This document shows positions 980 through 28,439 of a stretch of 64,000 nucleotides of DNA, piece by piece. Both the position numbers and the translations under genes were made by a program. How positions within the stretch are numbered: position 1 is the first letter of the stretch; every line of letters starts with the position of its first letter. The notes below the pieces were generated by a model. It was not told the origin of the DNA. It saw nothing but the letters and a program-made list of their open reading frames with translations, and ran no database searches. Origin of the DNA: Arbacia lixula (Eukaryota > Echinodermata > Echinoidea > Arbacioida > Arbaciidae); the NCBI GenBank assembly GCA_963669155.1, contig OZ022587.1, forward strand, positions 19,368,214 to 19,432,213, given 5' to 3'.

Positions 980-2565
980 GACTATGATTTATGCTGACGA
1001 TAGCGACGAAGGCAACGGAGCCGTCAAACAATGATAAGTTGCTCACTACCCGACAGCACAATCAATTTGCGCTGACAGCTCGAATTTAGCGTATGAGGAT
1101 AGTTGAACAATAGCCTGATAGGCGTTCCAAGCTTGTCGAGCAAACTAGATTTGTGGTTGTAGAAAGCGATATTAAAATCTGTTCTGTACATATCACGACA
1201 GGATGGGAAGTGGAAGGACGAAATGACGCTGAATACAGCTCGATCATTATTGGCTTATGGTTAATTAAATTAATGCTGATATTGGATTATCAAGTTAAAA
1301 GTGAGACGTGTGAGTTCGTACTTTAATCATGTTAATCATGATGTTTAAAAATCAAACGTGCTCGAAATCTATTCTGCTTTAGGTATTCAAGAGCACCCAA
1401 AGTACACGTATATTTAAGTATTGATTTTTTTCAATGTGAGTGTCCTTTTTTTTTGTGTGTGTGTTTTTTCTTTAAATCGTTTTATTGAATGTGAAAACGT
1501 TGCAAGCGAAACGAAAAGGCGGCATACATAATTCCACAGGAAATAAGACTTCTCAATCACGGTGCATGTATAAAAATAAAGCATTTAAGAGCAAAACACG
1601 GTGTGTTTTAGCCATTCTGTTTAATTTTCGCTTAGTCATTAATGTAGATTTTGTTCTCCAAATCAAGATTTCGAGCTTGCTGAAAAAAGGGTGACGTGAA
1701 TAACAGTATAATAGTTATCCTTTCATTTCTCTGACAATCAAGCACCTGCAACTGCAGCAATTAAGTTGCTTTTTTGTTATTATGTTAATCGTTAATATTG
1801 TTCCATTATTAGAAATGCTTCTAAAGCTAACTCATTAGGAAGCGTACTCGACTTTCAAATCATATCATTGACGAGCAATAATGAATTGATATTGTGACAG
1901 CTATATTGCCACCATTTTCATTATTTTCATCTTCTTTTTAACAAAGCAGAGATAATGCTTTCTCTTTGGGTTTTCAATGAGTGTAAATGCGTCTTACCGA
2001 AGGCGGGAGTGGTTGCTCCCAGTTTGACAAAACGACGTGAAACATGTCGTTGAGATGACAATAGCAGCTGTCAGTCAAAGCAGCACGCGAGGCGCTATCA
2101 GCAGACAAAAGCTTAACAACGCATTCTACCCTATTCTGACAAAAGGAAACAACTAACAAAATTTTCTTGAATAAATGAGCGAAATGTGTCTGTTACTTGC
2201 ATTCGCATCAGTGCAAAAGCACATCATGTTAGATTTAATATATCGCAGCAAGATTAATATTTCTTGTCCAGATTTTGGCCGCGTGTAGGTAATGGGTAGT
2301 TGGGTACAATCTAAGAATACCAATAACCCAGATTTGAGTGATTTGTCACTTCCTTCCTTTTGTCAGAGTAGGGCGGCATTGTCCTTGGGCGATGTTGCTT
2401 AACGCTTAATACCATCGATGCATTTGCTCAAGGCATACGCTCAAAACCCATAGAGTAGCAATCTATCTGGCACACGAAGGGTTGAGTATACATTATAGTA
2501 TCATTGAAAGAAATGCAACCGAATTACACAATGTACACCAGTATTACCAATACATCTGCTTATTT

Positions 2566-4510: not shown

Positions 4511-4522
4511 ATGCCTAAACAG
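4511..4522 (+). CDS. Lectin gene, candidate first coding exon (MPKQ)
   Basis: ATG CCT AAA CAG is followed by a GTGAGC donor in phase 0, matching the exon at 6204. TTTTACAG just upstream (ending 4502) looks like a splice acceptor, so a non-coding 5' exon is likely further upstream. It was chosen because the exon at 6204 has an in-frame stop upstream and no Met near its start. Confidence 0.55.
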
Positions 4523-7341
4523 GTGAGCATCTTACACGATTGTTCTTTATGTCTGTTGTGTTGTCTTATTTTGGAAAATCTTTCCCTTTCTTCACATTCT
4601 ACTCGTTCTTCGTCTTGTCCATCTACTTCATCCCCTCCTCCTCCTTTTTTCCTTCTTTTTCATTTTTTTTCTTCTTCTCCTTCTTTTTTTCTTCTTCCTC
4701 TTCTTTCTCATTTACTTCTTCTTCACTGTTTTCTTCTTCTGCCTCTTCCTCTTCCTCTTCTTCTTTTCTTCTTCTATTCTTCTTCTTCTTTTTTTTTCAT
4801 TTACTTTTTCTTCTCATCTTTCTTCTTTCTCTTCTTCTTTTTCATCATCTACTCCTTCTTCTCTTTATTTTTCTTCTTTCTCTTCTTCTTCTTATCTTTC
4901 TTCTTTCTCTTCTTCTTTTTCATCATCTTCTCCTTCTTCTTCTTCTTCTTCTTCTTCTTCTTCTTCTTCTTCTTCTTCTTCTTCTTCTTCTTCTTTTTCT
5001 TCTTCTTCTTCTTCTGCCTCCTTCTTTCTTACTAACTTACACGGATGAATATTACACGTAGTGGGTATCATGACATATGACTTGTTTACTTTATAACATT
5101 TACATGTATACCATTGTAAGAAGAATTTGTATTGATCTCCAATTTACTCCCAAATTCAAAAAGGCCTATTACCTAGCAGTTGAGATGTGCACAAATATAG
5201 GGTGAGGATTTCGATTTTTTAATGAGCTGCTAAAACTCATCTTTACTATGATCATACTTACTGCACGGCCCAAAGAAGTAAATCTATTTTTTCGGAGCCG
5301 TTACTCACAAAAAATTTGTTGAATACATTGAAAATGTCCTTTGTATCATGGTACCGAAAATCTTCTCTCATCTTTGTTCCATGTTTTACTCATATTTCCT
5401 TGTGCGTTATGAAATTGAATTTTATCAATGTTTTAGGCAAATGTTATGTTTGTAACTTAATAAAGCTGCCCGTTTATAAACAAATTCGATGTTAGATTCG
5501 TCAGCCCTCCTATAACCATTGTCACGAATATGACGTCAACGGGGGGGGGGGGGGTCTAATTACTGGTATTGTATATGTTGACTATCATTGATACTGACAA
5601 TTGATAATTGATCGTTGTTACCTACTTTGGTCTACTGGGTCTGTATTTTGTGCCTTAGTGTGCAAGTTATTTATTTCATTGAACGTACTTTCAATAAAAT
5701 TACAGCTACATTTCTAAATCAGTACATTAGGCATCATATTGGTCACTTCGTATAACATTACCAACGCTACCTTTCGGCTTTCACCTTCAAAATTCTGATA
5801 TTTGATATTGTATAAAGGGTAAAGTGAGCTTTCGTTTAATCATATTTCCGTTAACATGGTAAAGCTGATTACAATTGGTTGAAGCTTTAATAAATTTAAA
5901 AAGAATACACTATTATCAAAGGTATGACTCCCCTTTTCTGTTTGTTCTCGCTTGCAACTTCGGGATCGTGGTTAGTTTAATAAACGCTTCCCCTTTGTGT
6001 AAGATCGAACATTACTATTTTAAAGAGGTAAGCTGAATCAAGAAGAGAAGGTGGTATCGATTCCTTCACTCTCATCGTGAAATAACAAATACATATTGTT
6101 ATCATTTTTAGTTAGTATAATTTCGGTTGCTACCTGTCTCATGAATACATAAATGAGAATTGTTTTCACAATTGCGATTCCTTTATCTTTAAATTGAACT
6201 CAGAACAAGTACGAGGACTGGGCGGTGCCTGGGAGTGGTCCTACGCAGTCTGGCCCGGGGAACTTAGGGCCGAGACTGGTTCACGAGCACCCATCCTCCT
6301 CCTCCCTACAGTACAGTCCCTCCCGCTCCACCACCGATGCCGCCCCCGAACTCGACCATGGCAAGTCCAAAAAGAGGAAGAAATCTAAACAGAAGTCGGA
6401 GAAGAAGGCGCAGCTGAAGGAGGACAAGAAGACGAAGGCGAAGTCAAAGAAGTCGAAGAAGGGGCGGGAGAATGAGCGGGTAGATGATATCGAGAGAGGT
6501 GGGGTGCGGGATAAAGGAGCGGTATTATTAGACGGCGCGCCACCAGAGCGTATTGTGCGGGACTTGATCAGGCGGTACGAGGGCCAGAATTTCGAGACGT
6601 GCGATATCCAAAAAGAAATCCGGTACGATCTCCACACGGGCAGGCAGAGGGCGAGGTCGTACTGCGACGTGGATGGAGGTGACGTCGACGAGGCTCTCGA
6701 GGTCAACGACGGTCTCGAGTACGATGCACACGAAGAGCAGGTAAACAAATTACCTAGGTTATTGTCTCAAATACGTACCCCTTCCCCTCTTTCCCTTTTT
6801 AACACATTGAATACCTATTCATCTGCCCTTTCATGTGTGTTACTTGTAACTAAAGTTACACGTGGCACACCAAGAGTTCAATAACTCCTGTTTAGTTTTA
6901 ACGATGAAGAATCTCCAGGTAGGCTTACACTATATATATTCAGATATTGATTCTTCATTCGTGTAAGAAATGAACATCTAATCGTTATTGATTTAACCAG
7001 CAGCTCCGTTATCTAATTTTGTGAACCTTGTTCTTATATTCTCGTCACTTGTTGTTGAGAGCATTATTTTCCTAATTTCATTTCGTACCTGTTCAATTCT
7101 TACCGTATTGCGGTCCTACTATTATTCAAATGTTAATGTGTAATGTTATAATTATCAATGTGCAATGACCGCTAATCGTGATATGTTCCAATACACCATG
7201 ATTAAACAAATAAGTACTTATATTCAGATGGTCAAGCATGGACACACACGCTCACACCCGTCACGTTACCATGGTTACATACTCCACCAGTGTTTGGCAT
7301 CATTCCATCATTCCCTCTATCTATCTCCCTCTCTCTCTCTC

Positions 7342-7386
<45 letters not shown>

Positions 7387-10300
7387 TTCTCTTTCTCTCT
7401 CTCTCTTCTCGCTAGATCGATGAGGAAATCCGAAGTCTTCCTCAGGAAGAAAACCTGGGTCCCATGTTCATCCATGAGGAAGTGGATCAGGAGGATTACA
7501 TCAATACCGGCTTCGTGGAAGATCCCCCGCCAGAGCTAGCCGAGGACGTCGCCTTGCAACACAGCACTTTGCCGCCTCAGGAGATGCCCTATCTCCATCG
7601 ACACCAGACCGACGCGCTACCGGAAGAGCCCCACTACAACCAGGCCCCTGACCCCGGACAGGTCGATTGGTACGCGGAGAAGGACTACGTCTCAAGGCGA
7701 AAGACCGACGCCCTGCCACCCCTGCCTCCCGACGCTAGCCAGCCGTACCCGAAAGCGGATTTCGACTACTACCCGCAGAAAGGCCGGGGTGGTAGTAGCA
7801 ATCACCAGAGGTATCAGTCCGATGCTCTTCCCCCGCTCCCCGGGGGTGATGGAGACTTTGCAGCTGAGAAGAAATCTGCGATAGAGAGAGCACGAGAGGA
7901 GGAAAGGAGCTGGCGTGATATAGGCCGGGATATGGGCTTACGTGGCCTACGTCAGGTTGAAAGGGTGACGGATTTTTTCACGTCGAAAGAAACGTCCCGA
8001 GAGATGAAGATTGTGGCAATTCTCATTTTCTCGGGGGTTCTGGTCGTTCTGTTTGCTTGTATCATCATGGCCATTTTCCTTTCAGGTGAGAATAATGGTA
8101 TTTCATTGTATCAATGCCGGTCTAGTGCACTAGTGAGACCGGAAGTGTGTATGACTGCAAGTGAAACCGGATGTCGCTGCAATATGGAGATTGGATTTTC
8201 CTGGACCACACTGTATGAGATGGTAACTTACAATTAATGGTAACAACACACATAATGCTTAGAGGTCATTGGCTGTTTCCATAGTAACTACAATACTCTC
8301 ACAGTTGTAAGCTGTGAATAAATACCTTACTCAGATATGTGCAACGTGCAATCATGGTTTCAGAATTAAAGGATAACGACGAATGGTTGTTGACAGCTAT
8401 TATTCAAAGGGAGGGGGAAAGGTGAAAAGGTGAAAAGGTGAAAAGTGGCATATGGTACCCGATAAGTTTAATTTGATAAGTTTAATTTGAAAAGTGGCAT
8501 AAAAATGTTGTTATCATCTACAAACACGATATAATTTAACACTACGCATTACGTTTCATTTTGTGACAATATGTATTAGCCTCGTTGTTATCTTCACAAT
8601 GTCAACTGTAAAAAAAAATATTCGATCCTTGTGTTTCTTTCAGGTTCAAAAGGCGCTGTACAAGGTAAATTCAGATCACATTTCATTATAATTTCCAGTG
8701 GAAGGAACACGAATTCATTCAGAAAATGTTAATATTTATAGGTTTTAACGATGGTTGAGGAATGCGAAAAAATAACAATTAACCAGAAAAGAACGACAAA
8801 GAAAAAGGAGAGAAGGGAAAAGAAAATACAGAAATAGAATGAAAAAAAAGATGAATTAGAGGAAGTTGAAAGGTGTAAGAAGAAGAAAAAGGAAGTCTAA
8901 AATGCGAGGCTGAACAATATATGTTTTATGTTATTTGTCTAATAAAGATACGTTACCAATGGTAATAAGTGTCATAATGTGTAAGATGTGTCATAATGAG
9001 TATTAGTGATTTCAATCCATAGATTGGCATAATAGTTGTGAATTCAGTAGTCTGCATGTACCAGACTGTACTTAAAGAGGACCCGACTGAGACATTTCAA
9101 ATGAATTCGTCATATTAATTGGACTAATCTTTGTGCTTCAGCTTCCGTGCGATTGTGGAATTTTACAAACATCACTTCCGTCTGTGTTAGCTTCTACAGT
9201 TTTTACACAATTGCATATTTTAGACTTGTAAAAGGGATACCCAATCTTTGAAACAGCTGATCATTCGATCACACATTCGATCAGTAGCCTTGTAAAATAT
9301 CACGCACTACAACAACTTCCAACAAACAGAATGGAAGTAACCCCATGTCTGGCTACGTTGTCGATTCACAATTAGAGATATCGTTAATTAGAAAATCATC
9401 TTTTTCTTTGCCATGGCAACGCTATGTAGTGCAGACAGAGGCCCCTACCGAGGCCACAGTGACGGACAAAAGGGGCACTCTTGTGATCGGTGAGTTTCAC
9501 TACTTTTATCGAGTACCTTCTATCACCTATACGAAATATCAGATGGTAGGCCTTGTTTCTTAGTTGACATGCTTTATTTGTCATTTTCTAATCTGTCATC
9601 TCATTATCATAAACAATTAAAACACGATTATCATCTGTTTGTGAAATAGTATAACGTGAAAGCTCGTTCGCTTCGTTCTCAATTGCACTATGTTACAAAT
9701 ACCGTAAGTATTGTTACCAATCTGTCAAACTTATACGTTATTTGTCACCTGAAGAGCAGGTGCCAAATACAGATTATATACAGTCGTCAGATATGGACAA
9801 TGTGTTCACTATGTTTTAGTGAGAGTGGTGCGGTGTAGTTGATCGTTCCTGCAATAAATAAAACATCATCAAGCTCGAAATGCACGCAGTACAATTACAT
9901 GAGTTGCATTTGAGGGGTATACAATTAAGTTACAAGTTAAAGCAAATCATAATAAATTGCCATTTTTTTAAGTGTAAGTTGAGTTCGTTCTTTTGGGGGC
10001 TAATTGAATTCAATATCTTTTTGTTTATATTTTCAAATAAAATTCTTGGTGCTTAAACTTACAAATGTGAATATGATATTTTACAATTAACACAACGTAT
10101 TAATTCATCTATCTGTCTATGGACACCCAAAATAGCTTGTCAAAGTTAGTAAACCTAACATTTGTCTTTCTTATATGTTTGATAATTAACTCCAAATTGG
10201 GACAACTTATTGACTAACTTATGTATGAAAATACACTTATCCAATTAGTCATGCATGAGTGGACAAATTCTAAAGGCAAAATGTCACTTTTCAAAAGTCA

Positions 10301-11906
10301 CAAGGGTAGTTTTGGGATTCTGTCATATGAACTTTTGATGAATTCCATTTCTGGTGCATAATATATGTCCTTTAAATGTTTATCATCGATCTCTCGATGC
10401 ACTAACACCTATCCCGACACTTAACCGATTGTTCTGGTTGAGTGAGCACCGTTTAACAAATACTCATTCCTCGTCAGATTAAAACTTTTAAAATCCCTTT
10501 ATTTTGGTTTTAAAAAATTAAACTCTGGGTTTTATTGACAAAGATGTAACATGACCTGTTATGTAAACATAAGAAGTCATTTTCGTGTCATGGTTGAGTG
10601 AAAACAATTTAAAAATCGCACAAGAAATGCCAAAATGCATTGTTAAAACGGCATAAACCATTACCCTTGTGACTTTTGAAAAGTGACATTTTTGTCTTTA
10701 GAATTTGCCCACTCATGCATTAATTCTCCGCGGGGTTGTTTTCACAGACGGAGTAGAGTTGGACGCGACTGTTCGGTTGTCGAATCGTGCCTTCATCCCC
10801 CAATACAACAACGACCTATCACCGGAGTACATGGACCTGGCTACTAACTTTACCAACACAGTAAGTCGGACATAACATGCATAATGCCACCTTATCCGTA
10901 GCCGGTCACATAATTATTTCCTCGCCTCTTACTGATGTCAAATCGCCTTGGCTTGGCTTTTGTTCATCAATAATGCTAGGCGTAGGATTTTCAGACTTTT
11001 CCGCGGCGAGAGAGCCGTTGGCAGGCGGTGCGAACGGATGCGGCGAGCCGTTTCCATGTGAACGTACTTTAACTCCGGCAGGCGGCATGCGGCACGGTAG
11101 CCTCGTGTATAGATTTACACTCCTTCAAAACTTTGTCAAGGAACATAGACAAAACCATCTTCCTGGCATGCTGTTCCTTCCTAGCTTAAATCACGTTTCC
11201 AGACCCAGTTATTTCCAGATATATTTATGAATACCTGGGAGGCTACAACCATACATTGATGCTGTCATCACACCCTCTTGTCAGCAACCTCCCCATGAAG
11301 TATCTCACCACACTTCCTAAACGTATTTCTTCCGGACGGGGCAATTCTCGGCGATTGCGCGATCACTCGAATCGTTGCGCGCGCTATGTAAACGGATTCG
11401 GGCTCAAAATGCGCCTAGAGCCTAAACTAAAGCTGAGAAGAGGAGGAGTCAGGATGGAATTTGGGCGTAGTCTGTGTTACCAAACATAGTTGTTAACAGA
11501 CTCAGCTGTGTCCATGCGAAAAGAAAAGGAAAAAATGTTCTTTTTTTTTTACTCTTTTCGCGCCATTAATGCATTTTTGCACAAGTAACAAACAAAAATC
11601 ACATTGAAAGGTACATTTTGCTTGGTGCGTGAAAGGTCAATATATTCATGAGGCATCCAAGGATGTGATTATAAGATAGCAACGGTGCACATGTGTCATG
11701 CTTTCGTATGTATGACGTCATTTAATGTTGCCCATTTATAGATGGTTAGAGAACTTAGAGAATAGGGTAGTGTGACATGGAAATGAACGGCACAAGATAG
11801 ATCAAAATTGAAAAAATGAGGAGGAGGCCTTCCTTCAGCAGTAAAGAGAAATAGGCTAGATAGATAGATAAATAGATAGATAGAGCAAAAGATAGATGTA
11901 TGGATT

Positions 11907-11941
<35 letters not shown>

Positions 11942-12037
11942 GGATAGATAGATATATAGATAGATGGATAGATGCACAGATAAATAGATAGATAGATAGA
12001 TAGATAGATAGACAAATAGAAAGATAGATAGATAGAC

Positions 12038-12075
<38 letters not shown>

Positions 12076-12167
12076 AAAGGTAGGTAGATAGAAAGGTAGG
12101 TAGATAGATAGATAAAAAGGTAGGTAGATAGAAAGGTAGGTAGATAGACAGATACATAGATAGACAT

Positions 12168-12200
<33 letters not shown>

Positions 12201-15200
12201 CAGATAGATGGTGGCTTAACCCGTTGACACTTAAATCATCTCCTTTCAATTGAATTAACATAGGGAAAACCCGGTTTCAGTGAGATATGAGTTAATATAG
12301 TAAAACCTGCTTTCACGACCACTTGTATGGAAAGACGGCCTGGCTAAATATGCCACATTTGTTGTACTTGAACATTCTAGTCCATTAAAACCCGTGTTAT
12401 AGCACGGATACTGTTATGATACCTTCTTTCTTTTAACCTATGCTCGACTCTGCCGCCAACCAAATTTCTTCTCTCCCTTAAGCGGTCTTGCTATTTTAAT
12501 CTGAATAGACGTGTAGTTTGATAATGATCTTGATCATTTCTATTCTTAATTAGATGGATGACGTGTTTTATGGCAGCGATCTGAGCGGAGATTACGACGG
12601 CACGGTGGTTAACGGATTTGTGTAAGGACACTCATTAACATAATGGGAGAGAGAAAAGATAAATGACATAAATGTATATATACATAATCTCTCTTCCTCC
12701 TTTTCCCTTTTACAATACGTCATTATCGTTTGCCTCTGGATTTGTCAGAGTAGGATTCAGATGAAAACGTATTTGTCTTTTGATTTATGTTTGTGTGTTT
12801 ATGCTGACAATTTAAAAAGTTTTTCCTTGGATCTAAAAGAACTACACTTTAACAACTCAATCGAAAGCGAGAGAAAACGAGTGATATGGAGATAAGAGTT
12901 AGATAAGGAGAGGGAGAGCACCAAAGAGAGGAGGAGCAGGAGAAAGATAAATTGAATAAAAGGAAGATGATCTTGGGAGAGTTAATGAAGCAATCTGAAA
13001 ACAGAGCGCCATATATTGTCATCAGGCGGCATCAAGATTCAAGATTTAAGATTCAATTTTGTTTCCACAAAAAAGCGTAGCACATAAATTCAGGTACATT
13101 GAATGTATGAAAAATTATTTATGTTTGGAGTGGTTTGAAAGGAAGTTTTATTCTATGGTTGTTGGGTAAGAATATGATTTTTTGTGTTGTTAATTGGTTA
13201 GTAAATTCCTTCGTTACTAAGTTAATAAGTTACTTATTCAGGTAGTTAATTAGTTAGCCTGTCAGCGAATTAGTTAAATACTTATATCGCATTAACTAAT
13301 TTAAAGTGAGGTACATGCTGGTATATAAATAGGTAGATATAAGAAAAATAAAAATAAAAATGCAACAAAATTTCATTGGAGGTGGGAGATGGGGCCAGAA
13401 AAAAGAGTTTGAGTAGATATAGAAGGAATAGAGAAGGAAATACAAAATGAACATCTTGTAATTTTGTACTCTTAACACATGCATGAAACTTTATGTCACA
13501 AGAAGTTTCTTTTCCGATACCAGGTCAGGCAGCGTAATCGTTCTCTTCAAGATCCGCCTCCTCGCCCCTCCCACCCTGCCCTCCCCATCCCCTGGCGTCA
13601 CTTCCGGTGGATCAATAGCAGACCGCATAAAGCGAGTTGAGGATTCCGTGCAGAGCGCAGTTACCATGGTGATAGAGGAGGCTGCCGAAGAGGGCGGACT
13701 TAATGATTTAGGCGTTGACTCGACGTCTTTCGTTGTAACAGACGGTATGACCATTTATAAGTATACCACTAAACCTCCACAGTACCGTAGCTACATGGAA
13801 CCTGTAATAAGTCAATAGACTTCCCTGAGCTTGATCCTGAGAGGGTTAACCCTCTCGTATTACGATGTGCTCTTTCACTGTGTTATAGATTATGATCACT
13901 TCACGACTTGGTAAGAGCATCAAAGAGATTTCTTTAATTTAGCTTAAACACTCTACTTCTGAATATCATTGGTCCAAACTCTTATCTGAACCACGACGAG
14001 CAACTAATTTTAATGAATAAGAACTACCACCTTTTTACGTAAAATGTTCCACGCCGCTTGCAACAGGCAACGGATTATTTCGGTGACGGACCAAGTGAAT
14101 AGGAATGTCCTGGCGCATGATATCTAGAGATAGAAGCCTTTGAATATGATTTAATTGTCTTCATGTTATTTTGGAAACTTGATCTTTCCCTAAACCAGAA
14201 TTGACGTTTTACCGACGTGTATCAATCAAATAAGATACTTTGCGGCTAGGACCGCCTTTTATCCGCCACCATTCGGAAGATGCATCCAGGCTTGAACATA
14301 GATTCTTTACAGATTTCTTGAAAGACAGGCGCTCGCCAGAGTGCCTCATTATGTTATGAGAATCTTTTCTCCTGGATAAGTATAAGGAATCACCATTTTA
14401 CTTCACAAGTGAAGAACCCTTAATGCTAAATATGTTACTCATTGTGGATAATTCGCTAGTGATAATCGTTTGTCTCACAATGTATGGTCAACGGCATCGA
14501 AAAAGATCACGATTTTTCGTACGCCGCTGCAATACTTCGTCATGTGTGATACAAATTTGTAGTAAGTAGGGGTTTAAAAGAATAAAGAATCATTATTATA
14601 CTATATCATTGCGGAAATGGCGTCGTGTAGTTGATCGTTCATCTGACTCTCGATTAGGTGGGTAAGGGTTCGAATCCAGTGGCTGCACATGTGTTCTTCA
14701 GCAAAATAACTTATTCCACATAGCTGATCGATCCATACCCAGGAGATACTTAGGGACCAGGTAGGATCCTTTGATCCAGTGACTGGAGTTATGATGCAGG
14801 GCCATCATGGAAAGCAGTGTTCTCACTGACGAGGCTACCCTGGGTAAATAAGTGCGTATCATTATTGTTATTATATTTAATATTTCTGTTATTAATCAGT
14901 GTTGCGTGTGTTATTATCATTATCATTATCATTTGCATTTTTATCATTAATGTCATTATCATCATTATTATCAAGGAGAGAAATAGGGACCTGGTAGGAT
15001 ACTTAAATCCAGTGACTCGGGTAATAATGCAGGGTTATCATGAAAAGCACTATTAACATCAATGAGGCTACCCTGAGTAATTAAGACCATAACATTATTA
15101 CTATTATTATCATTATTACTATCGTTAAAACGTATAAGTATGATTTAACTTGGTCGCTTATCAACTCATTGATAATCTGATTTGAAGAAAAAAATACTTG

Positions 15201-18200
15201 TTTGTTCTGTAGTTGGTGTTGACGCCCGCATCGTAACGGAGGGACCGACCACAGTGCAGCCTACAACAACTACGCGACCTCCAGGTAAGCTACACACTGC
15301 GCCAAATTCAAGTGAATTTAATTCATTTTCCGATAAAAAAAAAAAAAAAGAATAACAATACGTGAATGTTATAAATTGATATCGAATGTTTAAACATGGC
15401 TGGGTACCCCCAGTCAGTTGTGCTAACGTGACACAGCTCTTATTCAAGTGATTGCAGAAAAAAAAGTTCACCAAGAAATATTTTACATAATAAACGAAAC
15501 AAAAATGATAGGGTGTAAACAAGTACACTGTAAACTAATTTGAATATCATATTCATCCCAATAAGATAATACGTGTACATGGAAATATTATTTAAAACAC
15601 CTCCAAGTGCCTAACCTGACCCCAAACTGCAAATCTAACCCGATTCTCGCTCAGTTCTCTATACCCGCTGAAGCCCTCATCCCATCCAATCATTAGGTAC
15701 GTTCTAAAGGTAAAGATGATTGATCCATACTGCAGCTCACCACCAACTAGTATAAATGGGATGTTTCACCAAGCTGTTCGTAAGTTACGAACGACTTTAG
15801 GAACAACTGGTTATCCCTTCTTGTACTAAATGCGATACCACACTTTGCTTATTGAGAATCTGATTTAGCACAAGAAGGGATCACCAGTCGTTCGTAAAGT
15901 CGTTTGTAACTTACGAACAGCTTGGTGAAACACTGGTAGGAATTGAAAGATAGTGTGAATGATATTGACCCAGCGCTACTATAGTGCAGTGGGCAAGGAA
16001 TACTCCACAGGAAATGGAGATGGTGCACAATGGTGTGTACGATACTTTACTGTATTCAGTGACCAGGACTTTCATTGTTACGATGGTTATATCCCTCTTA
16101 AAATTCATTCTGCGGACTACTATGGAAGAGACCTTTATACCATTTAAACTTACAATAAAGAACCGAAATGTGACGTCATATAGGTATGTCGTCAAGACAA
16201 CTACTTCTCCTCTTCGTCGGTATAGCGGACAACAGAGATCACAGTCAGGACTCCTACTGGGAGTGCCCTACACTAGCCCGCTAGACAATGTCGGACCAGT
16301 GAAAGTCNNNNNNNNNNNNNNNNNNNNNNNNNNNNNNNNNNNNNNNNNNNNNNNNNNNNNNNNNNNNNNNNNNNNNNNNNNNNNNNNNNNNNNNNNNNNN
16401 NNNNNNNNNNNNNNNNNNNNNNNNNNNNNNNNNNNNNNNNNNNNNNNNNNNNNNNNNNNNNNNNNNNNNNNNNNNNNNNNNNNNNNNNNNNNNNNNNNNN
16501 NNNNNNNTAGACAATGTCGGACCAGTGAAAGTCTCACTTGAGTGATGTTGCTTAGAACCAGGAACCGGCGTAACAATTGAAATGACGACACCACTTCGGC
16601 ACTCTAAACATTTAACGAGTAAAAATATCAATTTGTAATTCATATCGTAGCAAAAAAAAAACTTTATATACCAAACCTCAAGACTGAGAAGAGACAAGTT
16701 CTTTCACTGTGAAATAAGTTCTTATAGAAGTATAAGTGTAAAAAAATCGTACTGAAAAACAAAACAAAAAAACATTCTCAAAAGGTCCACCAAACTCAAA
16801 GTTTTGGGGATTGTATATTTGCTTCATTCAAAATTGCAGCTGGTCATCCATACTAGAATGCAGTACATGAATATTTATCATGACGCATATCACATTATTG
16901 TATATATGACTTTGTGGGTGTAATATTGGAAGTAGTATGTTCTCACTTAAAGACAGGGTGTCCCACTTGAAAAAGTAAAGAAAGTCGGCAGAAATCAGCA
17001 GTATGATTCAAAGGATAACCCTTATGAAGTTTCACAATCATAGCTTTAGGAACACTTTCAGGAAAAGTGAAAAACTATCCTTGTTTACGCCTAAACCGCA
17101 GCGAGCATAGTATAAATTCATAATATGTGTCCCTCTCAGCGCGCGATGCGAACAATTCCTCCAATTGAACGCATGCACAATGGACTGGACCATAGCCGTA
17201 CAGCAGTCTCCGGTCTCTAGGCTATAGATTTCGGACGAACCAGTCAACAACTTCCTCAAAATATACTGATTCTTACCATTTCGCTTAAAGTCAGTTTCCA
17301 GCTTTATTATTGAGATGGAAGTTCTAATAAAGTATATTCTTCCACTTCCGTGTTTGCTTTTTACAGAATGTTACTCTTTGACCTGCATACCATACGATAT
17401 TCATTTAAAAATAAAGGGAATATATCAATTGGTGGTTATTTATCATCATGCTTATTAATATTTGTATTTCTCTCGCCCTCTTCCTTGTAACATCATGCAT
17501 TTCGTTTAATTTTGAAAAATAAACATTGAAATTGGATTGTATCTATTGTGCAGATACTGACCCCCCAGCGCTGACATGTCCAGAGTCGATGGTAGTGTAC
17601 GTAGCAGAAGGGGATGAGTCAACACTGATCACATGGCCTGCACTTAATGCGACGGATGAATCGGGTCACGTGACCGTCGAGACGAATTTAGCACCGGGCG
17701 TATGGGAAATCGGCCATTACACGGTGGTGGCGACGGCTGCTGACTTAGCAGGGAACAGTGCTGAATGTAGCTTCAACGTGACCATCACAAGTATGTTCAT
17801 TTTAAGACAAAATTGTTATATATTTTTTTCATGATTCTCAAGATTAAATGTTTTTGTAATCACCATCTTTGGAGTCTATTCTTCGCTATGCCTCCATCGA
17901 TCGTCCATATATTGTTTCGTAGTTATTACTCATATATTGTTCTTCAGTTGTTGATTGATTTGTTTATCATTCGTTCCTTCAGGCCATTTCACTGAACAAT
18001 TACTCTTGATGTGCCACTTATCCATTTTAGTACCGTTCGTAGTACACACACATCCCATAGAACAGTAGTTAATCTAGCGCACAAAGTGTCAATAAATCAA
18101 TAAACCAATCAACACAAGGTATCTATAGTGCTGGGTCGTGTTATGTTCACGTGACAAGGTGTCATTGGTACTGGGTCGTGTTATGTTCACGTGACAAGGT

Positions 18201-21200
18201 ATCATTAGTGCTGGATCGTGTTATGTTCACGTGACAATAAGGTATCATTGGTGCTGGGTCGTGTTATGCTCACGTGACAATAAGGTGTCATTAGTGCTTG
18301 GTCGTGTTATGTTCAGTTGACAGGCCTTCCTATAAAATATTTCCTTATCTTCCATTTTATGCACTGGAACAGTCTCTTCTTCGTGTGATGACCCGGATCA
18401 GGCGAGACACTTTTCGAAACAAATGTTCTTTGCATTAATCCATGTGTGACCCGTTTTGCTTGTAGGTCTTGTGTTGAACTATAAGACTTTTTAGAAAAAC
18501 TCATCAGTATTTGGCTGTGATTTGGCAACGTCAATGTTTGTGATCAGATTTTTATCTTTGCACGGAACGCACATTCGATTGTATATAATACAAAATAACA
18601 TAAAACGTACACTTTTGAGCCATAATGGCGACCATCTGAGGAGCAAAAGCGTAATTTCAACGTGTAAGGCGCGTAGCCAATTTAGAAAGACTTAAGTTAG
18701 TGATCATTTGACCTGTATTTTAGTTTATAAAAAAAAAACTGTACAAAAGTGCAACATATCAATAAACGACGAAGATGGATTAATATTGTGCATAAATGTA
18801 TGCTCTTCCAAGTAATGCATATTGTCTTTAATACTTGATGTGAACAGTACTAGCACCTGAGAGGTTTCTAAAGGGAAATTCCATCCTTAAAGGGAAAGTT
18901 CAGCCTGAAATTATCTTGGTTTCAATAAAAAGAGACAAATGAAAGAAACATGAGTGAAGGTTTGACGAAAATCGGTCAAAGGAAAATAAAGTAATTTGAT
19001 TTTATTTTGTGACGTCACGTGCGAGGTGCTCTTCCATATGTTGTGTACAAGATATGTCGATAAATTGCTTTTTTTCTGTTTTTGACAACGGAATTATTTT
19101 TTTTTTCGTACAGGTAGGTGTGTAAAAACGTATTTCTAATAACGTATCAAATGCACAAGAAAAAGGATGCATATCTTTGTGAGAAAATGCATATTTTCGA
19201 GAAAAAAAAATTGTGCACAATATAACAGCACTTCGCATGTGACGTCATAAAATCAAAACTTTGAAATCAAATAACTTTCTTTTCCTTTGACCGATTTTCG
19301 TCAAACCTTCACTTATAATTATGTTTTTTTCATTTGTCTCTTTTTATTGAAACCAAAATAATTTTAGGGTGAAATTCCCCTTTAAAGGCATAAAACTCGG
19401 TGGGAGTCAGCAGTATACCGCAACAATAACATGCATGAAAGTTCACAGTCATAGCCTCACGAACCTTTTCAGATGAAGTGAATAGCTAGCCCTGCTTACG
19501 TTTAAAACGTAACGATAGACCATGGTTTACAGTCACATACCGTTTAGTCAGGATGCGCCAATATGCCTCAACGTATCACTGTGCGGTGCCAAAAGCCGTG
19601 ATGTGTGCTATTGATTTTATGTTGCTGCTATGATTAAAACGATTCTAACTTATGTATTTCATGAACGTTGTCAGCACTGACTAAATAGTCGGTGCTGACA
19701 ATTTTGGTCAAATCCTCGGCTCCTGGATTGACTGAGAGGAACTAGCATCTGACTGTTACTATGGTAACTGTCGGAGAAAGACAACTTGTCAGACGAAAAA
19801 TGTTGATGAAATGCCCCCAGGACTTTCTCTTTAAAAATAAAAAACATTTCTCTTTAGCTGACAGATGCGACCCGGGATGGTGGAGAAAGAATGGTCGGTG
19901 CTACATGTTCAGCCCCCAATCAGTCATGTACGCGACAGCACTCGACGTCTGTTCCGCTCTCCAAGCGACGCCATTCATACCGACTACTCAACGCGAGTTC
20001 GATAACGTCGTTGCATACGCCAGGGGTGAAGGCCTATATCACGTATGGATCGGGTGCGATGACGTCGCCACGGAGGGGGTTTTTGACTGTTTTGATGGTT
20101 CGGTGATTTTGCAATCAAGTCGTAAGTTAATCTCGCTTCAATTTTTCTTCCGTTATACCTTGTTTTCATCATTTTGTCGAGCTCCGCCCTTCCCCTCCTT
20201 TGCAAAATATATGTTGTTAGTTTTCTTTCTTGTCGTCCCCTTTTTCATTGTTCTTCTATTTACATGCACGTGTGAAGGAGAAATCGATTCGTGATCTGTT
20301 AACAAGGTCGTTGATGTACTCATCATGTGAACCAAGTGTAAATCAAATACATGTAATCAATTCCGCACTAAGCCAATAAAATGTATCTTTTACATAAACA
20401 GTAAATTCATCAATCTATACATCAATTTGTCAGTCAATCTACTAATCAGCCCAATAAATTATGTATTCAATCGATCATTAGTCACTCAAGGAAATACGCA
20501 GCGATCGCTATTATTCGAATAAGTATTCAATAAATTAACCGAACCATACAACCACTCAATGTGCAACCATCTACACGCTTAAAAATGAAATGTTGAATTC
20601 ACCCTTTTACTTGCTGAATTCACCACATTGAATAGGGGCGAGGAGTGACAGCGTTTTAAATGCTGGTTTACCCTTTTTGAAAGTGCTAAGAATACAGCAC
20701 GTTTAAAGTGCTGGAAAAAACGCTGGATTGTAGCTTTTTTCCGCGTACACGGAACGGGGTTAATTAGCGTGTTGAATGCTGTTTTAGCGTATTAAAAATG
20801 TTGAAATTACACCCTTTTGAAAGTGCTGTAAAAGGTGCTGAATTTTGGGCCTAGCTGCTCCTATATAGCCACGCACATACACCCACAATGTACATTCACA
20901 TACACGCACACACGACACACACCCACACCCACCCAGTGCCTACACCCAAACTCACGCCCGCACACACCCACACCCACGCACAAACACACTCACACTAATC
21001 GAAAAAGTAACACCACTTTTTTGTTTTTCAAAATATTTTATTAGAGATTTCGTTCAAAATAAATCATTACATAAAATAAATGCTAAATTTCAATCCAAAT
21101 ACAAATGTTCGTTTCTTTTCACACATGTAACACAGTGTTGAATTATTTACAAGACTAGCATGGAACAAATATGAAATCACTACACAAATAATATATTAAC

Positions 21201-24200: not shown

Positions 24201-26942
24201 GGAAAATGGAAATCAAAGAATAAATGAATCTAAATTCAACCACCCATCTCCTGAAAAGAGACACCAGGATCGTACATAGTAACCACCCATTCTCAAGTTA
24301 AGGAGCACCAGGATTGTGAATAGGAAAAGAAAATCTCATGAGATATATGAGGAATGTTAGCAAATCAGATATTAAAGATGGAAAATGTAAATCAAAGAAT
24401 AAATGAATCTACATTCAACCACCCATCTCCTGAAAAGACACACCAGGATCGTACATAGTAATCACCCATTCTCAAGTTAAGGAGCACAATCCAATGCTGT
24501 TTCAACATTTTGGAAGTGGTTCACTCCACAAGTACTATGGAAATCCTTTGGTTAACACAAAGAATGTCTTGGATAACTATCACCATGACAAAGTACCAGA
24601 TTTGAAATTGTTTTCATTAAATATTATGGTAGATCACTTCACAAGACTTAAGTAATACTGTGATTACCATGATAATGGATTGTTTGACAAACCTAAAAAC
24701 ATCTACAGTACATCTCAATGTCATCATTTACCCAAGTTCCATTTAGATTTGCAGTGTATACAATCCTGTTCCATTGATATTTCAATCAAATTCTGAATCT
24801 GATTGCATGGTACTTTTCATTATAGTGAATGACACATATGAGTGTTTGTGAGCACTGAAATGCACTTTGTTCACTCCATTCACACATGCTTTTTTTCATT
24901 TTTTTTTTATTTCAATGCATAGATCTATAGATCTATGTGAAAACTCTCATTGATTTGGTTGGCAAATTAATTTTAAATTTCAAAATTGTAATCCCTTCCA
25001 GATTCCACGTTTCTAAAGAGAAGTGTAAAGAGAAGTATTAATACTATGTGGCAGATTTTCAAAATTAAAAAAAAATCAATATCTTATTTAGAGATCTAAG
25101 TATTAGGTCTACTCATTTTAACATGTTTCCTGCTGTGCTGGAAAACCATTCTGGTACTACTAGTTGTGGTAGGCCTAGTTGATTTTGATCAAAACATTAC
25201 TTTTACTGTTTAGTGTTGGTATTGGTGCGCTTGCCTAAAAAAATGTAAAACGGTAAGCCTATAAATAGATCTAATTGGTAAAAAAAAATGTTATTTTCTT
25301 TTTCAGATAACCTAGCACTTAGCAGTAGCACACAAAATGCATCTGAAAGCTGCACGACTGGCCGTACCGGTTAACAGGAACCGGGACAGGAACCCACGCG
25401 TGTGAATTGCCTGAGCCGATGTGTTAAGTTAGACCCCGGGTTAGACAGAGATTAACTTAGACCTTCCAACTTTGACACGATTTGCATTTTACATAGTTGA
25501 TGTTACATAAATTGACAGTGGATTTATAAAATAGTGATAGTTTACCCTTAAAAATAAAGAAGAAATGGGTTGGGAGACTGATCTGCAGGCACAAGGATCT
25601 GAACTATTAAGTGCAAGGTTTCACTTTGAAAATTTGTTACACCAAATCTAATTTAGATATGAATATGAGCACAATACATGTACGTACATGTAGTAATGCA
25701 AGCAAACTGTGCACAGGTTCCGCAGAGTGGTTTCAAGATAAATGTTAAGACACCCACAAAACACTAGTTTGAGACTCCTATAACCTAAATATATTACCAA
25801 ATTTAAAATCAATGATACCTTTAACTCTCAGTGGTGTAGATTTCTAAAGATTGGAGTATCACTTACCAGATTCCCGAAGATTAAGCAGGATGACATCAGC
25901 TTCGCTTGAAATTTTGCCGTGGATCGCAGCAAGGGACGCTTTTTAATGACGCTTAGGCCATGACGTCACATGTAACGTGGACCAATCAGTTTATTCGTGT
26001 GACCCAGCACTTTTAAATTGCCTAATCCAGCAAACTTATGAAAGTGTGAAATCAACGCATTCACCGTGCGTGACATATCCCAGCCATTTCTTTAGCATTA
26101 TAAGTGCTACATTAGCGTTTTCCTTTTTCAGCACGTTTGAAAACGCTCGATTCAACATTTGATTTTTAAGCGTGTAACAAGACGGGCATTCAATCAATCA
26201 GTCAATCAGTATAATAGACAGAAGAATCAAGCAATGATGAATCAACCAATTCTCAATACCCCGTGATAAGGAAAAGTCGCCCCTCAGACGTGCACCGCGC
26301 AATGCATGTTTGCAGTCATCCAAGGGCACTATGGTATAGTGACAGGCCTTGACGCTCGCAGAGAGATCCCGGGTTCAAGGGTGCGTACATCCTTGGACAA
26401 GGTGTTTTGCTCATGTTTGTCCCTCTCAACCCAGGTGAAGTAAATGGGTACCTGGCGGGAATGTAGTATTCCTGATGTAATTAGATCAACTAGCTTCTAA
26501 CGCTACATACTTGGCTGCTTGGCTACAGCCAAGGTAATAATCGAGCGCTTTGGGTAGTAATTCGTACTAGGAAAGCGCTATATAAGAACTGATTATTGTT
26601 ATCATTCCTGTCTTGTACGCTAATGCGCTAGACCGGAATTGGGTATGACTCAACTGATCTCTACACACCATAGTGTAGAGTTCAGTGGGTGTAACTGCAA
26701 ATATACGCTGCGTGGTGGATTGTGTAGACGACTTTCCCCTATAATGCGGTAATGAGAATCATGGGAGACTGAATCATGTTGATCGACTAGTATGTTGTCT
26801 CCACTTCTCTACCAGCGTGGTGGGCCAACGGACAGCCGAATTCTTTACGGAATGAGAACTGCGTGGTGCTCGTGGTAAACGGCGGGACCCTCCACGACTG
26901 GTACTGCACCTACAATGGGCCTGTCGCCCTCTGCGAGAAAAG
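4511..26942 (+). CDS. Type II membrane C-type lectin with SEA and HYR domains (12 coding exons)
   Basis: Twelve exons join with matching phases into an open frame of about 801 residues. Residues 1-379 are cytoplasmic. They include a Lys-rich tract (about 57-90, starting KSKKRKKSK) and three TDALP/SDALP motifs near 247, 280 and 318. A hydrophobic helix (about 380-405) follows basic KETSREMK, giving N-in topology. Outside lie a SEA domain (about 435-565) with the autoproteolysis-type motif GSVIV, a Thr/Pro linker, one HYR domain (about 592-670) and a long-form C-type lectin domain (about 672-801). The likely role is surface adhesion or recognition. The lectin site has QPN instead of EPN or QPD, and LHD where WND is usual, so sugar binding is uncertain. 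The terminal exon is not settled (see 28279). No known gene name is claimed. Confidence 0.85.
4590..5022. repeat. (CTT)n microsatellite in lectin intron 1
   Basis: About 430 bp of imperfect CTT/TTC repeat become pure at roughly 4929-4994. The tract is homopyrimidine. The long Phe/Leu open frames over it are artefacts. Confidence 0.95.
5023..6203. other. Rest of lectin intron 1
   Basis: AT-rich sequence with a G14 run at 5541-5554 and two AATAAA strings (for example near 5458). I see no coding exon here. Confidence 0.5.
6204..6740 (+). CDS. Lectin gene exon 2: cytoplasmic polybasic region
   Basis: 179 codons, phase 0 at both ends, with acceptor AACTCAG and donor GTAAAC. It encodes a Gly/Pro/Ser-rich start, then a Lys/Arg tract of about 35 residues. 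An acidic part with [19 protein letters not shown] follows. No known domain is recognised, and most of it looks disordered. Confidence 0.85.
7322..7410. repeat. (TC)n tract forming the polypyrimidine tract of exon 3
   Basis: The CT repeat lies directly before the CGCTAG acceptor at 7415, so it serves as the splice polypyrimidine tract and its length may vary. Confidence 0.9.
7416..8085 (+). CDS. Lectin gene exon 3: proline-rich cytoplasmic region and transmembrane helix
   Basis: 223 codons, entering in phase 0 and leaving in phase 1 at TCA G|GTGAGA. Three motifs, [22 protein letters not shown] and [13 protein letters not shown], are spaced by 33-38 residues and fit a short ligand motif for proline-binding modules. 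A charged stretch with [15 protein letters not shown] comes before the membrane. The helix [20 protein letters not shown] ends the exon. Confidence 0.9.
8644..8664 (+). CDS. Lectin gene exon 4: 21-nt micro-exon
   Basis: The TTTCTTTCAG acceptor and GTAAAT donor enclose 21 nt, phase 1 to phase 1, encoding GSKGAVQ. It sits just outside the membrane. It is symmetric and so could be skipped without a frameshift. Confidence 0.7.
9430..9489 (+). CDS. Lectin gene exon 5: juxtamembrane stalk
   Basis: 60 nt, phase 1 to phase 1, with acceptor TATGTAG and donor GTGAGT. It encodes [20 protein letters not shown]. The next possible AG would break the frame. It is likely an O-glycosylated stalk. Confidence 0.75.
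10251..10720. mobile_element. MITE-like element with about 60-bp terminal inverted repeats
   Basis: The left arm (10251-10309) and right arm (10661-10720) are inverted copies starting ATGCATGAGTGG, with only a few mismatches and one indel. The 470-bp interior has no ORF. The element ends 27 bp before the next lectin exon, so it abuts that acceptor. Confidence 0.85.
10748..10860 (+). CDS. Lectin gene exon 6: SEA domain, first part
   Basis: 113 nt, entering in phase 1 and leaving in phase 0 (acceptor GTTTTCACAG, donor GTAAGT). The translation [20 protein letters not shown], then [15 protein letters not shown], has the usual SEA start: a beta strand, then S-x-E-Y and a helix. NFT is a possible N-glycosylation site. 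Confidence 0.88.
11230..12550. other. Lectin intron 6 with GATA microsatellite
   Basis: Apart from the GATA array I see no coding exon. The short open frames at 10877-11230 and 11256-11489 lack splice-compatible phases and recognisable domains. Confidence 0.5.
11855..12208. repeat. (GATA)n/(TAGA)n microsatellite
   Basis: About 350 bp of GATA repeats with GGTAGGTA and ACAGATA interruptions. Antisense frames read as Tyr/Leu/Ser repeats and are not genes. Confidence 0.95.
12554..12621 (+). CDS. Lectin gene exon 7: SEA domain, middle
   Basis: 68 nt, phase 0 to phase 2 (acceptor TTAATTAG, donor GTAAGG). It encodes [19 protein letters not shown], then NGF, matching the SEA helix and the strand that precedes the cleavage turn. 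Confidence 0.85.
12622..13523. other. Lectin intron 7
   Basis: AT-rich intron. I see no exon and no clear repeat element. Confidence 0.5.
13524..13744 (+). CDS. Lectin gene exon 8: SEA domain end with GSVIV motif
   Basis: 221 nt, phase 2 to phase 1. The first codons give [18 protein letters not shown] fits the G/SVVV-type SEA autoproteolysis site. A Pro-rich loop ([11 protein letters not shown]) is inserted, followed by the last helix and strand, ending SFVVTDG. Donor GTATGA. Confidence 0.85.
14620..14880 (+). mobile_element. tRNA-derived SINE
   Basis: The head has an A-box-like GTGTAGTTGATCG and a good B box, GGTTCGAATCC (14668-14678). An unrelated body ending GGCTACCCTGGGTAAATAAG and an ATT-rich tail follow. 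A similar body lies at 14983-15085, and a shorter one at about 47228-47290. Confidence 0.65.
14983..15125 (+). mobile_element. Second, headless SINE body copy in tandem
   Basis: AGGGACCTGGTAGGATACTT through GAGGCTACCCTGAGTAATTA repeats the body of the SINE at 14620 and ends in an ATT/ATC tail. The tRNA-like head is missing, which suggests a 5'-truncated copy inserted into the tail of the first. Confidence 0.6.
15213..15284 (+). CDS. Lectin gene exon 9: Thr/Pro linker
   Basis: 72 nt, phase 1 to phase 1 (TTCTGTAG acceptor, GTAAGC donor). It encodes [20 protein letters not shown] and then TRPP, a mucin-like spacer between SEA and HYR. Confidence 0.8.
15760..15933. mobile_element. Foldback MITE, family A (copy 1)
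   Basis: The ends GTTTCACCAAGCTGTTCGTA and its reverse complement enclose a 174-bp palindromic element. TGG flanks both sides. A second copy lies at about 53878-54041. The surrounding repeat has an apparently empty counterpart at about 31880-31960. Confidence 0.85.
16240..16620 (-). repeat. Dispersed repeat, copy 2, interrupted by the assembly gap
   Basis: Read on the minus strand it matches 3460-3620 from GGTGGTGTCGTCAT through AACATCACTC to CGGGCTAGTG. The alignment continues across the gap when the duplicated flank is counted once. Confidence 0.7.
16308..16507. other. Assembly gap of exactly 200 N
   Basis: The N run is bordered by the same 26 bases on both sides (16282-16307 and 16508-16533). 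It lies in lectin intron 9. The round size suggests a placeholder, not a measured length. Confidence 0.98.
16970..17230 (+). repeat. Dispersed repeat family B (copy 1)
   Basis: The stretch with TCACAATCATAGCTT, then AAAAGTGAAAAAC and GTTTACG, recurs in diverged form at 19388-19600 and 39140-39265. No end structure is visible. Confidence 0.55.
17554..17790 (+). CDS. Lectin gene exon 10: HYR (hyalin repeat) domain
   Basis: One exon of 237 nt, phase 1 to phase 1, encodes exactly one HYR module of 79 residues. It has the family landmarks [26 protein letters not shown], then [15 protein letters not shown] and SAECSFNVT. Two Cys bound the fold, and NAT and NVT are N-glycosylation sequons. HYR is an immunoglobulin-like adhesion module named after sea-urchin hyalin. 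A symmetric single-exon module is typical of exon shuffling. Confidence 0.95.
18117..18322. repeat. Minisatellite, 40-43 bp units, with CACGTG E-boxes
   Basis: There are five units of the form GTGCTGGGTCGTGTTATGTT plus CACGTGACAA. The E-box cores are at 18148, 18188, 18228 and 18271. The fifth unit has CAGTTG instead. Confidence 0.9.
18887..19385. mobile_element. TTAA-flanked MITE with about 150-bp inverted repeats (Kolobok-like)
   Basis: The ends are TTAAAGGGAAAGTTCAGCCT and an inverted, diverged counterpart ending CCCCTTTAA. The arms share AAAGAGACAAATGAAA and TGACGAAAATCGGTCAAAGG. The TTAAAGGR start resembles T2-type MITEs assigned to the Kolobok superfamily. A related, one-armed copy is at 41460-41790. 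Confidence 0.8.
19388..19600 (+). repeat. Dispersed repeat family B (copy 2)
   Basis: It matches 16970-17230 in TCACAGTCATAGCCTC, TTTCAGATGAAGTGAA and GCTTACGTTTAAAA. Confidence 0.5.
19665..19790. repeat. Hairpin-ended repeat related to 34379-34533
   Basis: TTGTCAGCACTGACTAAATA and its near-palindrome are followed by CTCTGACTGTTACTA-like text and AACTTGTCAG. The same order occurs at 34379-34533, which indicates a shared MITE family. It ends about 65 bp before lectin exon 11. Confidence 0.6.
19858..20121 (+). CDS. Lectin gene exon 11: C-type lectin domain, N-terminal part
   Basis: 264 nt, phase 1 to phase 1. [15 protein letters not shown] gives the extra disulfide of long-form lectin domains. 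LDVCSAL is the next conserved Cys in helix 1, VWIGCDD replaces the WIGL motif, and FDCFDGS matches the W/F-x-DGS strand. Donor GTAAGT at 20122. Confidence 0.92.
20838..20998. repeat. CA-rich degenerate microsatellite
   Basis: ACACAC/CACCCACA repeats with frequent interruptions, inside the 5.6 kb transposon. Confidence 0.8.
21612..21821. mobile_element. 210-bp MITE, TA target duplication
   Basis: The ends CTGTAAAAGTG and CACTTTTACAG are each flanked by TA. Just inside, ATATTTTCGCG and CGCGAAATAT extend the inverted repeat with a small indel. The interior is CpG-rich with GCGC-type stretches. Confidence 0.85.
22817..23157 (-). pseudogene. Decayed 3' exon of a transposon-borne ORF (SAMD3-like C-terminus)
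   Basis: On the minus strand a CTCTTTCAG acceptor (ending 23158) opens a frame with [20 protein letters not shown], then ERAT. It continues after one frameshift with [17 protein letters not shown], then [20 protein letters not shown], to a TAA. The pattern QFFVIID...[12 protein letters not shown]...[10 protein letters not shown] resembles the C-terminal part of SAMD3-like uncharacterised proteins of fish and invertebrates. That family call is from memory of the pattern and tentative. Its place inside an inverted-repeat element suggests it was part of the element. Confidence 0.45.
23249..23268. repeat. C20 homopolymer
   Basis: An uninterrupted run of C directly borders the start of the 180-bp tandem array. 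Confidence 0.95.
23269..24487. repeat. Satellite-like tandem array, 179-180 bp unit, about 6.8 copies
   Basis: The junction word ATATATGA[AG]GAAT recurs at 23450, 23630, 23810, 23989, 24169 and 24348, following a first copy at 23270. Every unit contains ACCACCCATCTCCT and AAGGAGCACCAGGATTGTGA. Units alternate between two subtypes over part of the array, giving a 359-bp higher-order unit. Confidence 0.95.
26312..26607 (+). mobile_element. tRNA-derived SINE with GCGCTATATAAGAAC tail
   Basis: An A-box-like TATGGTATAGTGACAGG and the B box GGGTTCAAGGG (26371-26381) form the head. The 3' part ends AAAGCGCTATATAAGAACTG followed by ATTATTGTTATCATT. It lies in the lectin intron just before exon 12. 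Confidence 0.7.
26653..26690. repeat. Short hairpin related to the 35181 element
   Basis: ACTGATCTCTACAC and the near-complement GTGTAGAGTTCAGT form a stem. The same words make the 39-bp element at 35181-35219. No clear target duplication is seen here. Confidence 0.6.
26816..26942 (+). CDS. Lectin gene exon 12: C-type lectin domain, C-terminal part
   Basis: 127 nt, phase 1 to phase 2 (acceptor TCTACCAG, donor GTACAC). It encodes [17 protein letters not shown], then GGTLHDWYC and ALCEKR, so the last three conserved Cys are present. QPN occupies the sugar-specificity triplet and LHD the WND position. A Tc1-like element begins 33 bp downstream. Confidence 0.92.
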
Positions 26943-28278: not shown

Positions 28279-28439
28279 AGTCCACCGTAGAACCAACGGA
28301 TAGACAGGAGAAGTGTCGGTGCAAGGTTCGGCGTGTCTATGTACCCATAGAAAACTCCAACGGCAGCAAACCCTGTAGGAAATGTTATTCAATACTGCAC
28401 CACACAGCCACGTTTGAAATCTATTCGCTTCCGGTTTAA
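28279..28439 (+). CDS. Candidate Cys-rich terminal exon (lectin gene or separate transcript)
   Basis: After TTTGATACAG the frame reads STVEPTDRQEKCRCKVRRVY, continues with VPIENSNGSKPCRKCYS and stops at TAA. Five Cys and a good acceptor make it look coding. It needs an incoming phase of 1, but lectin exon 12 leaves in phase 2. A direct join therefore gives an early stop. It is either joined through an unseen small exon, used by another isoform, or unrelated. A Mutator-like element begins 25 bp after the stop. Confidence 0.45.

What the first reader, a model, noticed from the sequence alone, without database searches (positions are those of the whole stretch)
4511..26942. Type II membrane protein combining SEA, HYR and C-type lectin domains
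The twelve exons join in phase to give a long cytoplasmic tail, one helix, SEA, linker, HYR and lectin domain. HYR and lectin domains are usually found in secreted or type I proteins. A SEA domain with a GSVIV cleavage-type motif next to the membrane suggests a cleaved, non-covalently held surface lectin. I do not know a described protein with this exact order.
Basis: partly seen in the sequence, partly recalled or inferred. Interest (0 to 1): 0.72.

Follow-up and report, generated by a model that had tools for sequence, protein, structure and literature searches.

The report
Membrane-tethered SEA-HYR lectin gene
An animal gene, probably from an echinoderm, appears to encode a surface protein that sits in the membrane by its front end and carries a possibly self-cutting SEA module, a hyalin repeat and a lectin-like head; the parts are all known, but I found no described protein with exactly this order.

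Summary
Twelve exons, with borders chosen by eye, join in phase to 800 residues: about 380 cytoplasmic, one helix, SEA, Thr-rich linker, HYR and CTLD. Pfam accepts SEA and HYR in the whole protein, Lectin_C only for the CTLD alone. A thirteenth exon at 28279 probably holds the stop. New evidence: a second locus of the same genome, C19:20.51 Mb, has the same SEA and linker in four exons of equal phase, 91 of 157 residues identical, GSVIV kept, with HYR exons downstream; so SEA and HYR belong together. LDLa and trypsin exons follow, as in type II membrane proteases. Sea urchin Ebr1_5 with TM, SEA and seven HYR is in print. I read it as a matriptase-like tether whose SEA cuts itself at Gly496/Ser497 and holds a HYR-CTLD head non-covalently. 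New variant of a known kind; transcription, cleavage and ligand binding are untested.

The parts
4511..4522 (+). exon 1, start codon and 4 residues (MPKQ)
   Evidence: ATG with an upstream in-frame stop and GTGAGC donor; weakly supported because so short
6204..6740 (+). exon 2, cytoplasmic tail with Lys-rich stretch
   Evidence: open frame, AG/GT, phase 0-0
7416..8085 (+). exon 3, cytoplasmic tail with three [TS]DALP motifs, and the transmembrane helix at its 3' end
   Evidence: open frame, phase 0-1, hydrophobicity peak 3.2; motifs at residues 248, 280 and 318
8644..8664 (+). exon 4, 21 bases, juxtamembrane
   Evidence: phase 1-1
9430..9489 (+). exon 5, juxtamembrane
   Evidence: phase 1-1
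10748..10860 (+). exon 6, SEA part 1
   Evidence: Pfam SEA; 113 bases, same length as the C19 counterpart
12554..12621 (+). exon 7, SEA part 2
   Evidence: 68 bases, same length and phase as the C19 counterpart
13524..13744 (+). exon 8, SEA part 3 with GSVIV (Gly496/Ser497)
   Evidence: GSVIV conserved at C19
15213..15284 (+). exon 9, Thr-rich linker
   Evidence: phase 1-1, counterpart at C19:20508849-20508926
17554..17790 (+). exon 10, whole HYR domain
   Evidence: Pfam HYR 9.6e-14 in the whole protein, 1.1e-15 alone; phase 1-1
19858..20121 (+). exon 11, CTLD part 1
   Evidence: Lectin_C 3.1e-5 for the CTLD alone, PDB CTLDs
26816..26942 (+). exon 12, CTLD part 2 (GQPN, LHDWYC, CEK)
28279..28303 (+). 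candidate exon 13, RVHRRTNG and stop TAG
   Evidence: AG acceptor, in phase with exon 12 (second reading; its first printed reading used a wrong frame); not confirmed by any relative

Best explanation
One gene encodes a type II membrane protein: a long cytoplasmic tail, one helix, a SEA domain near the membrane, a Thr-rich linker, one HYR domain and a C-terminal C-type lectin-like domain. Shown by sequence: exon phases, domains, order, and a second SEA-linker locus with HYR exons downstream. Inferred: the SEA cuts itself between Gly496 and Ser497 during folding, as in matriptase; fragment 1-496 stays in the membrane and the rest (half SEA, HYR, CTLD) stays held non-covalently, so the head can come off under force or further proteolysis. 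The head would bind a glycan or protein ligand, with or without calcium; the tail, with Pro-rich repeats and a basic stretch, would recruit cytoplasmic partners. It probably arose by shuffling phase-1 modules onto a SEA-HYR membrane stalk.
For: Exons and phases; SEA and HYR over Pfam cut-offs; Lectin_C when given alone; PDB CTLD matches. Second locus: four exons with equal phases, two of them of equal length, 91 of 157 residues identical, GSVIV kept, followed by HYR exons on the same strand. pN 0.283 and pS 0.761 (dS saturated) in 134 SEA codons of the two loci. No candidate separate start in the HYR/CTLD intron. GSxxV with x = V or I is the autoproteolytic motif; matriptase, a type II protein, is cut at Gly149/Ser150 in its SEA and stays tethered. 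Sea urchin Ebr1_5 has TM, SEA and seven HYR.
Against: No transcript or protein data. Lectin_C gave no row when the whole protein was scanned. Two distinct frames that could be separate starts lie between exons 8 and 10, 4 rows where 4 control stretches gave 1, 2, 1 and 0. The calcium and sugar motif is not canonical: QPN and LHD where EPN or QPD and WND are usual (motif names recalled). At C19 the third SEA exon alone gave no Pfam row and the PF01390 scan did not list that SEA, so it is a SEA by homology with the window's; no transmembrane exon was seen there, with 5000 N in the stretch upstream. A 200-base gap in intron 9 could hide exons. The SEA had no SEA match in the PDB by sequence.
Confidence: 0.65

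Rival explanations
1. Two neighbouring genes: a TM-SEA gene ending at exon 8 or 9, and a secreted HYR-CTLD gene starting in intron 8 or 9.
For: Intron 9 is 2.3 kb with an assembly gap. Two distinct frames (4 ATG rows, two overlapping pairs) with a hydrophobic start and a phase-1 donor lie between exons 8 and 10; 4 control stretches of the same length gave 1, 2, 1 and 0 rows. One of the two frames runs through the gap.
Against: C19 has the same SEA-linker run followed by HYR exons; Ebr1_5 has SEA and HYR in one protein; the candidates are only slightly more frequent than in the controls.
Confidence: 0.1
2. The SEA folds but does not cut itself; the protein is an ordinary one-chain type II lectin-like receptor with a stalk.
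For: Cleavage depends on sequence and on structure (passage); this SEA seems to have an extra Pro/Ser-rich loop after the GSVIV strand (my reading of the sequence).
Against: GSVIV fits GSxxV and is kept at C19 although about 42% of aligned residues differ.
Confidence: 0.25
3. The model is incomplete: further HYR or other exons are missing at the gap or after exon 12.
For: 200 N in intron 9; exon 12 has no stop; exon 13 is inferred; another frame at 28279 is open for 52 residues but gave no Pfam row and has the wrong phase.
Against: The CTLD reaches CEK with all eight Cys; among the scored matches there was no further HYR or CTLD row in the window (150 of 872 candidates scored).
Confidence: 0.2

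Closest known systems
Sea urchin Sp-Ebr1_5 (SPU_006534, putative egg bindin receptor), PMC5521101, passages seen
   Same: transmembrane domain, SEA and HYR in one protein
   Different: seven HYR and no CTLD mentioned; order and topology not stated in the passages; not compared by sequence here
[quoted passage not shown]
   Same: type II topology, SEA near the membrane, Gly/Ser self-cleavage with non-covalent hold
   Different: protease domain at the C-terminus; here a CTLD
C19:20.484-20.511 Mb locus of the same genome
   Same: SEA and linker 58% identical (91 of 157), same exon phases, HYR downstream
   Different: at least 11 HYR-like stretches, then LDLa and trypsin exons; membrane exon not seen
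Type II C-type lectin-like receptors of the mammalian NK gene complex (PMC2704933, abstract in the listing)
   Same: type II topology with a CTLD; the best PDB matches of this CTLD are mincle chains
   Different: no SEA and no HYR (recalled)
Drosophila Uninflatable (PMC3340373, passages seen)
   Same: HYR and CTLD in one transmembrane protein
   Different: large, with EGF, CUB, CCP and FA58C; no SEA in the list given; type I (recalled)

Membership tests
SEA domain | Pfam SEA over cut-off | tested here: met
   2.3e-10, 41 bits against 26.4; profile positions 4-76 of 106 matched
Autoproteolytic SEA | GSxxV with V or I at x | tested here: met
   GSVIV at 496-500; motif
Autoproteolytic SEA | observed self-cleavage | not testable with these tools
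   needs an expressed protein
HYR domain | Pfam HYR over cut-off | tested here: met
   51.9 bits against 21.7, whole profile
C-type lectin-like domain | Pfam Lectin_C over cut-off | tested here: met
   25.1 bits against 22.6 for the CTLD alone; no row for the whole protein
Calcium-dependent sugar-binding CTLD | EPN or QPD, and WND motif (recalled) | tested here: not met
   QPN at 765 and LHD at 784 (positions); so I file it as a CTLD, not as a proven lectin
Type II transmembrane serine proteases | N-terminal helix followed by SEA | tested here: met
Type II transmembrane serine proteases | trypsin domain | tested here: not met
   no Trypsin row up to E = 1; hence not a member, though the stalk resembles one
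Ebr1_5-like SEA-HYR membrane proteins | transmembrane domain, SEA and HYR in one chain | tested here: met
   defined from the sentence
Ebr1_5-like SEA-HYR membrane proteins | sequence orthology | not tested
   no sea urchin sequences were at hand

The most novel reading that the evidence does not exclude
The stalk of a type II membrane protease lineage (helix, self-cutting SEA, linker, HYR) was reused to display a lectin-like head: one locus of the genome carries SEA-HYR-LDLa-trypsin in a row, the other SEA-HYR-CTLD. The protein would be a releasable, force-sensitive type II lectin, a kind that I did not find described with this order.
Probability: 0.35. Interest if true: 0.5.

Novelty: new variant of a known kind. 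Interest (0 to 1): 0.36.

Why it matters
If true, it shows that a self-cleaving SEA stalk can be paired with either a protease or a lectin-like head in one genome, and gives a case for testing SEA cleavage in a type II lectin. The sea urchin relative by domain content is a putative egg receptor under positive selection, so gamete or immune recognition would be the first places to look. The domains themselves are ordinary.

Tried and rejected
Two-gene split: tested by looking for separate starts, which gave two distinct frames against 0-2 rows in four controls and so did not exclude it; I reject it mainly because of the C19 locus. Longer C-terminus from the open frame at 28279 (52 residues): no Pfam row and wrong phase. 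Other SEA-HYR-CTLD loci: among the 150 scored of 872 candidates, 9 rows that match mainly the CTLD lie outside the window, and 0 of these 9 has a scored HYR row within 0.6 Mb (read from the table; the nearest, on C12, is 0.63 Mb away). The best of them, C10:15.086 Mb, has the second CTLD half and, on reading, a PAN-like exon; I saw no SEA or HYR in 30 kb that include 2037 N. The PF01390 scan of the genome gave 3 matches and missed the SEA of the window and of C19, each split over three exons, so it has little power. A search with the SEA region gave 8 rows, 14 of 14 candidates scored: 3 in the window, 3 at C19 and 2 weak ones at C1. A scan of 23 loci (L014-L036: the three and 20 stretches beside 9 of the HYR clusters; other clusters were not looked at) for the motif and by phmmer found a strong SEA only in L017; L016 gave 0.024. 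In one search, 3 of 9 queries gave no family: two C19 stretches that I had thought CUB-like or unknown, and the third C19 SEA exon alone. SEA against the PDB gave 6 matches up to E = 10, best 0.094, five of them antibody chains. Relatives of the tail and helix could not be searched. Species: unnamed; echinoderm is inferred from abundant HYR and the setting, not shown.

Full report
What was checked. I rebuilt the gene from the window sequence. With borders chosen by eye, the twelve exons at 4511-26942 all end at GT donors, eleven follow AG acceptors, and they join in phase to 800 residues without a stop. The introns have phases 0, 0, 1, 1, 1, 0, 2, 1, 1, 1, 1, and exon 12 ends in phase 2. The SEA (exons 6-8), the linker (exon 9) and HYR (exon 10) are each bounded by phase-1 introns, the usual sign of shuffled modules (established knowledge). 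The weakest points are exon 1 (12 bases) and exon 13.

Domains. Pfam on the protein with that ending (808 residues): HYR 9.6e-14 and SEA 2.3e-10, both over cut-off; no Lectin_C row up to E = 1. The CTLD sent alone gave Lectin_C 3.1e-5, 25.1 bits against 22.6, and phmmer against the PDB found 121 sequences up to E = 1, the best being mincle at 1.7e-11. The ectodomain has ten Cys, two in HYR and eight in the CTLD (positions); the pairing, including an extra pair C737-C748, is inferred. The one strong hydrophobic helix is at about 380-406, after a Lys-rich and Pro-rich tail with three [TS]DALP motifs. The long charged N-terminus without a hydrophobic signal points to type II topology; this is inference, not a test.

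A second locus supports the SEA-HYR link. Motif and phmmer scans of 23 fetched loci found a SEA in L017, at C19:20.51 Mb. Its three SEA exons and the linker exon have the same phases as in the window, and two have the same lengths (113 and 68 bases). The joined stretch is 58% identical (91 of 157 aligned residues), with GSVIV kept; the alignment scores 436 against at most 26 in 200 shuffles. In 134 aligned codons pN is 0.283 and pS 0.761, with dS saturated, which fits purifying selection but gives no exact ratio. Downstream on that strand lie at least 11 HYR-like stretches (8 in L013, 3 more rows), an LDLa exon (5.4e-11) and trypsin exons (1.8e-12, 1.2e-17, 5.4e-8), then an Fz-like exon just below its cut-off (31.8 bits against 32.1); two further stretches and the third SEA exon alone gave no Pfam row. 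That all these belong to one gene is inferred from order and strand. A search with the SEA region found strong matches only at these two loci, 14 of 14 candidates scored. The counterpart's membrane exon was not seen; 5000 N lie in the stretch where it should be.

Separate starts. In the intron between HYR and CTLD my scan found no candidate start; between exons 8 and 10 it found 4 rows in two distinct frames, and four control stretches of equal length gave 1, 2, 1 and 0 rows. So this scan alone does not exclude two genes; the C19 locus and Ebr1_5 are the reasons to prefer one.

What is in print. [quoted passage not shown] Matriptase, a type II protein, is cut at Gly149/Ser150 in its SEA and stays tethered by the non-covalent hold (PMC5567652, passages). 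Autoproteolytic SEA domains carry GSxxV with V or I at x (PMC9478142, passages), which GSVIV fits. Uninflatable of Drosophila combines HYR and CTLD with many other modules (PMC3340373, passages). Of the nine paper searches, two named all three domains: 0 of 9 papers and 0 of 13 listed papers hold all three terms. I saw passages of seven papers and no whole text; most subscription papers are not held.

Mechanism. Most likely the SEA cuts itself at Gly496/Ser497 on folding. The membrane half, with the tail, then holds the HYR-CTLD half by the SEA fold alone, so the head can be released by pulling or by further proteolysis; in matriptase shedding needs a further cut, so release by plain dissociation is not to be taken for granted. 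The ligand is unknown: QPN and LHD depart from the usual calcium and sugar motifs (recalled), so 'lectin' means the fold here.

Verdict. The finding is real and well read. It is a new combination of known modules on a stalk shared with a SEA-HYR locus that has protease exons downstream, so I call it a new variant of a known kind with moderate interest. Function, cleavage and expression are untested.

Noticed in passing
C19:20484000-20511468 of the same genome (L017, L013, L036), minus strand: SEA, linker, at least 11 HYR-like stretches, LDLa, trypsin exons and an Fz-like exon in a row: possibly a type II protease with an unusual HYR stalk.
   Followed up: partly
window 35574 to about 59720, + strand: A gene that starts with a RIIa domain (Pfam 2.4e-13) and, on reading, has several IQ-like exons; a large exon near its end holds about 24 copies of a 27-base repeat (58208-58853).
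   Followed up: partly
window 1-980, - strand: Exons of a rhodopsin-like GPCR; two joined pieces score 5.5e-7, 29.8 bits, just under Pfam's cut-off of 30.5.
   Followed up: partly
window 23270-24487, inside intron 11: Tandem array of a 179-base unit with a 359-base higher-order period.
   Followed up: no
window 28930-30660: Stretch dense in AACTGGT and its complement ACCAGTT (reading); tandem units of 55 and 142 bases at 29724-29842 and 29928-30304.
   Followed up: no
window 15762-15932: Inverted repeat with 75-base arms, 91% complementary, 21 bases apart, in intron 9.
   Followed up: no
C10:15079000-15086184 (L009), minus strand: CTLD with the same extra Cys pair (WIGC...C.DG), followed on reading by a Thr-rich and PAN-like exon.
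   Followed up: partly
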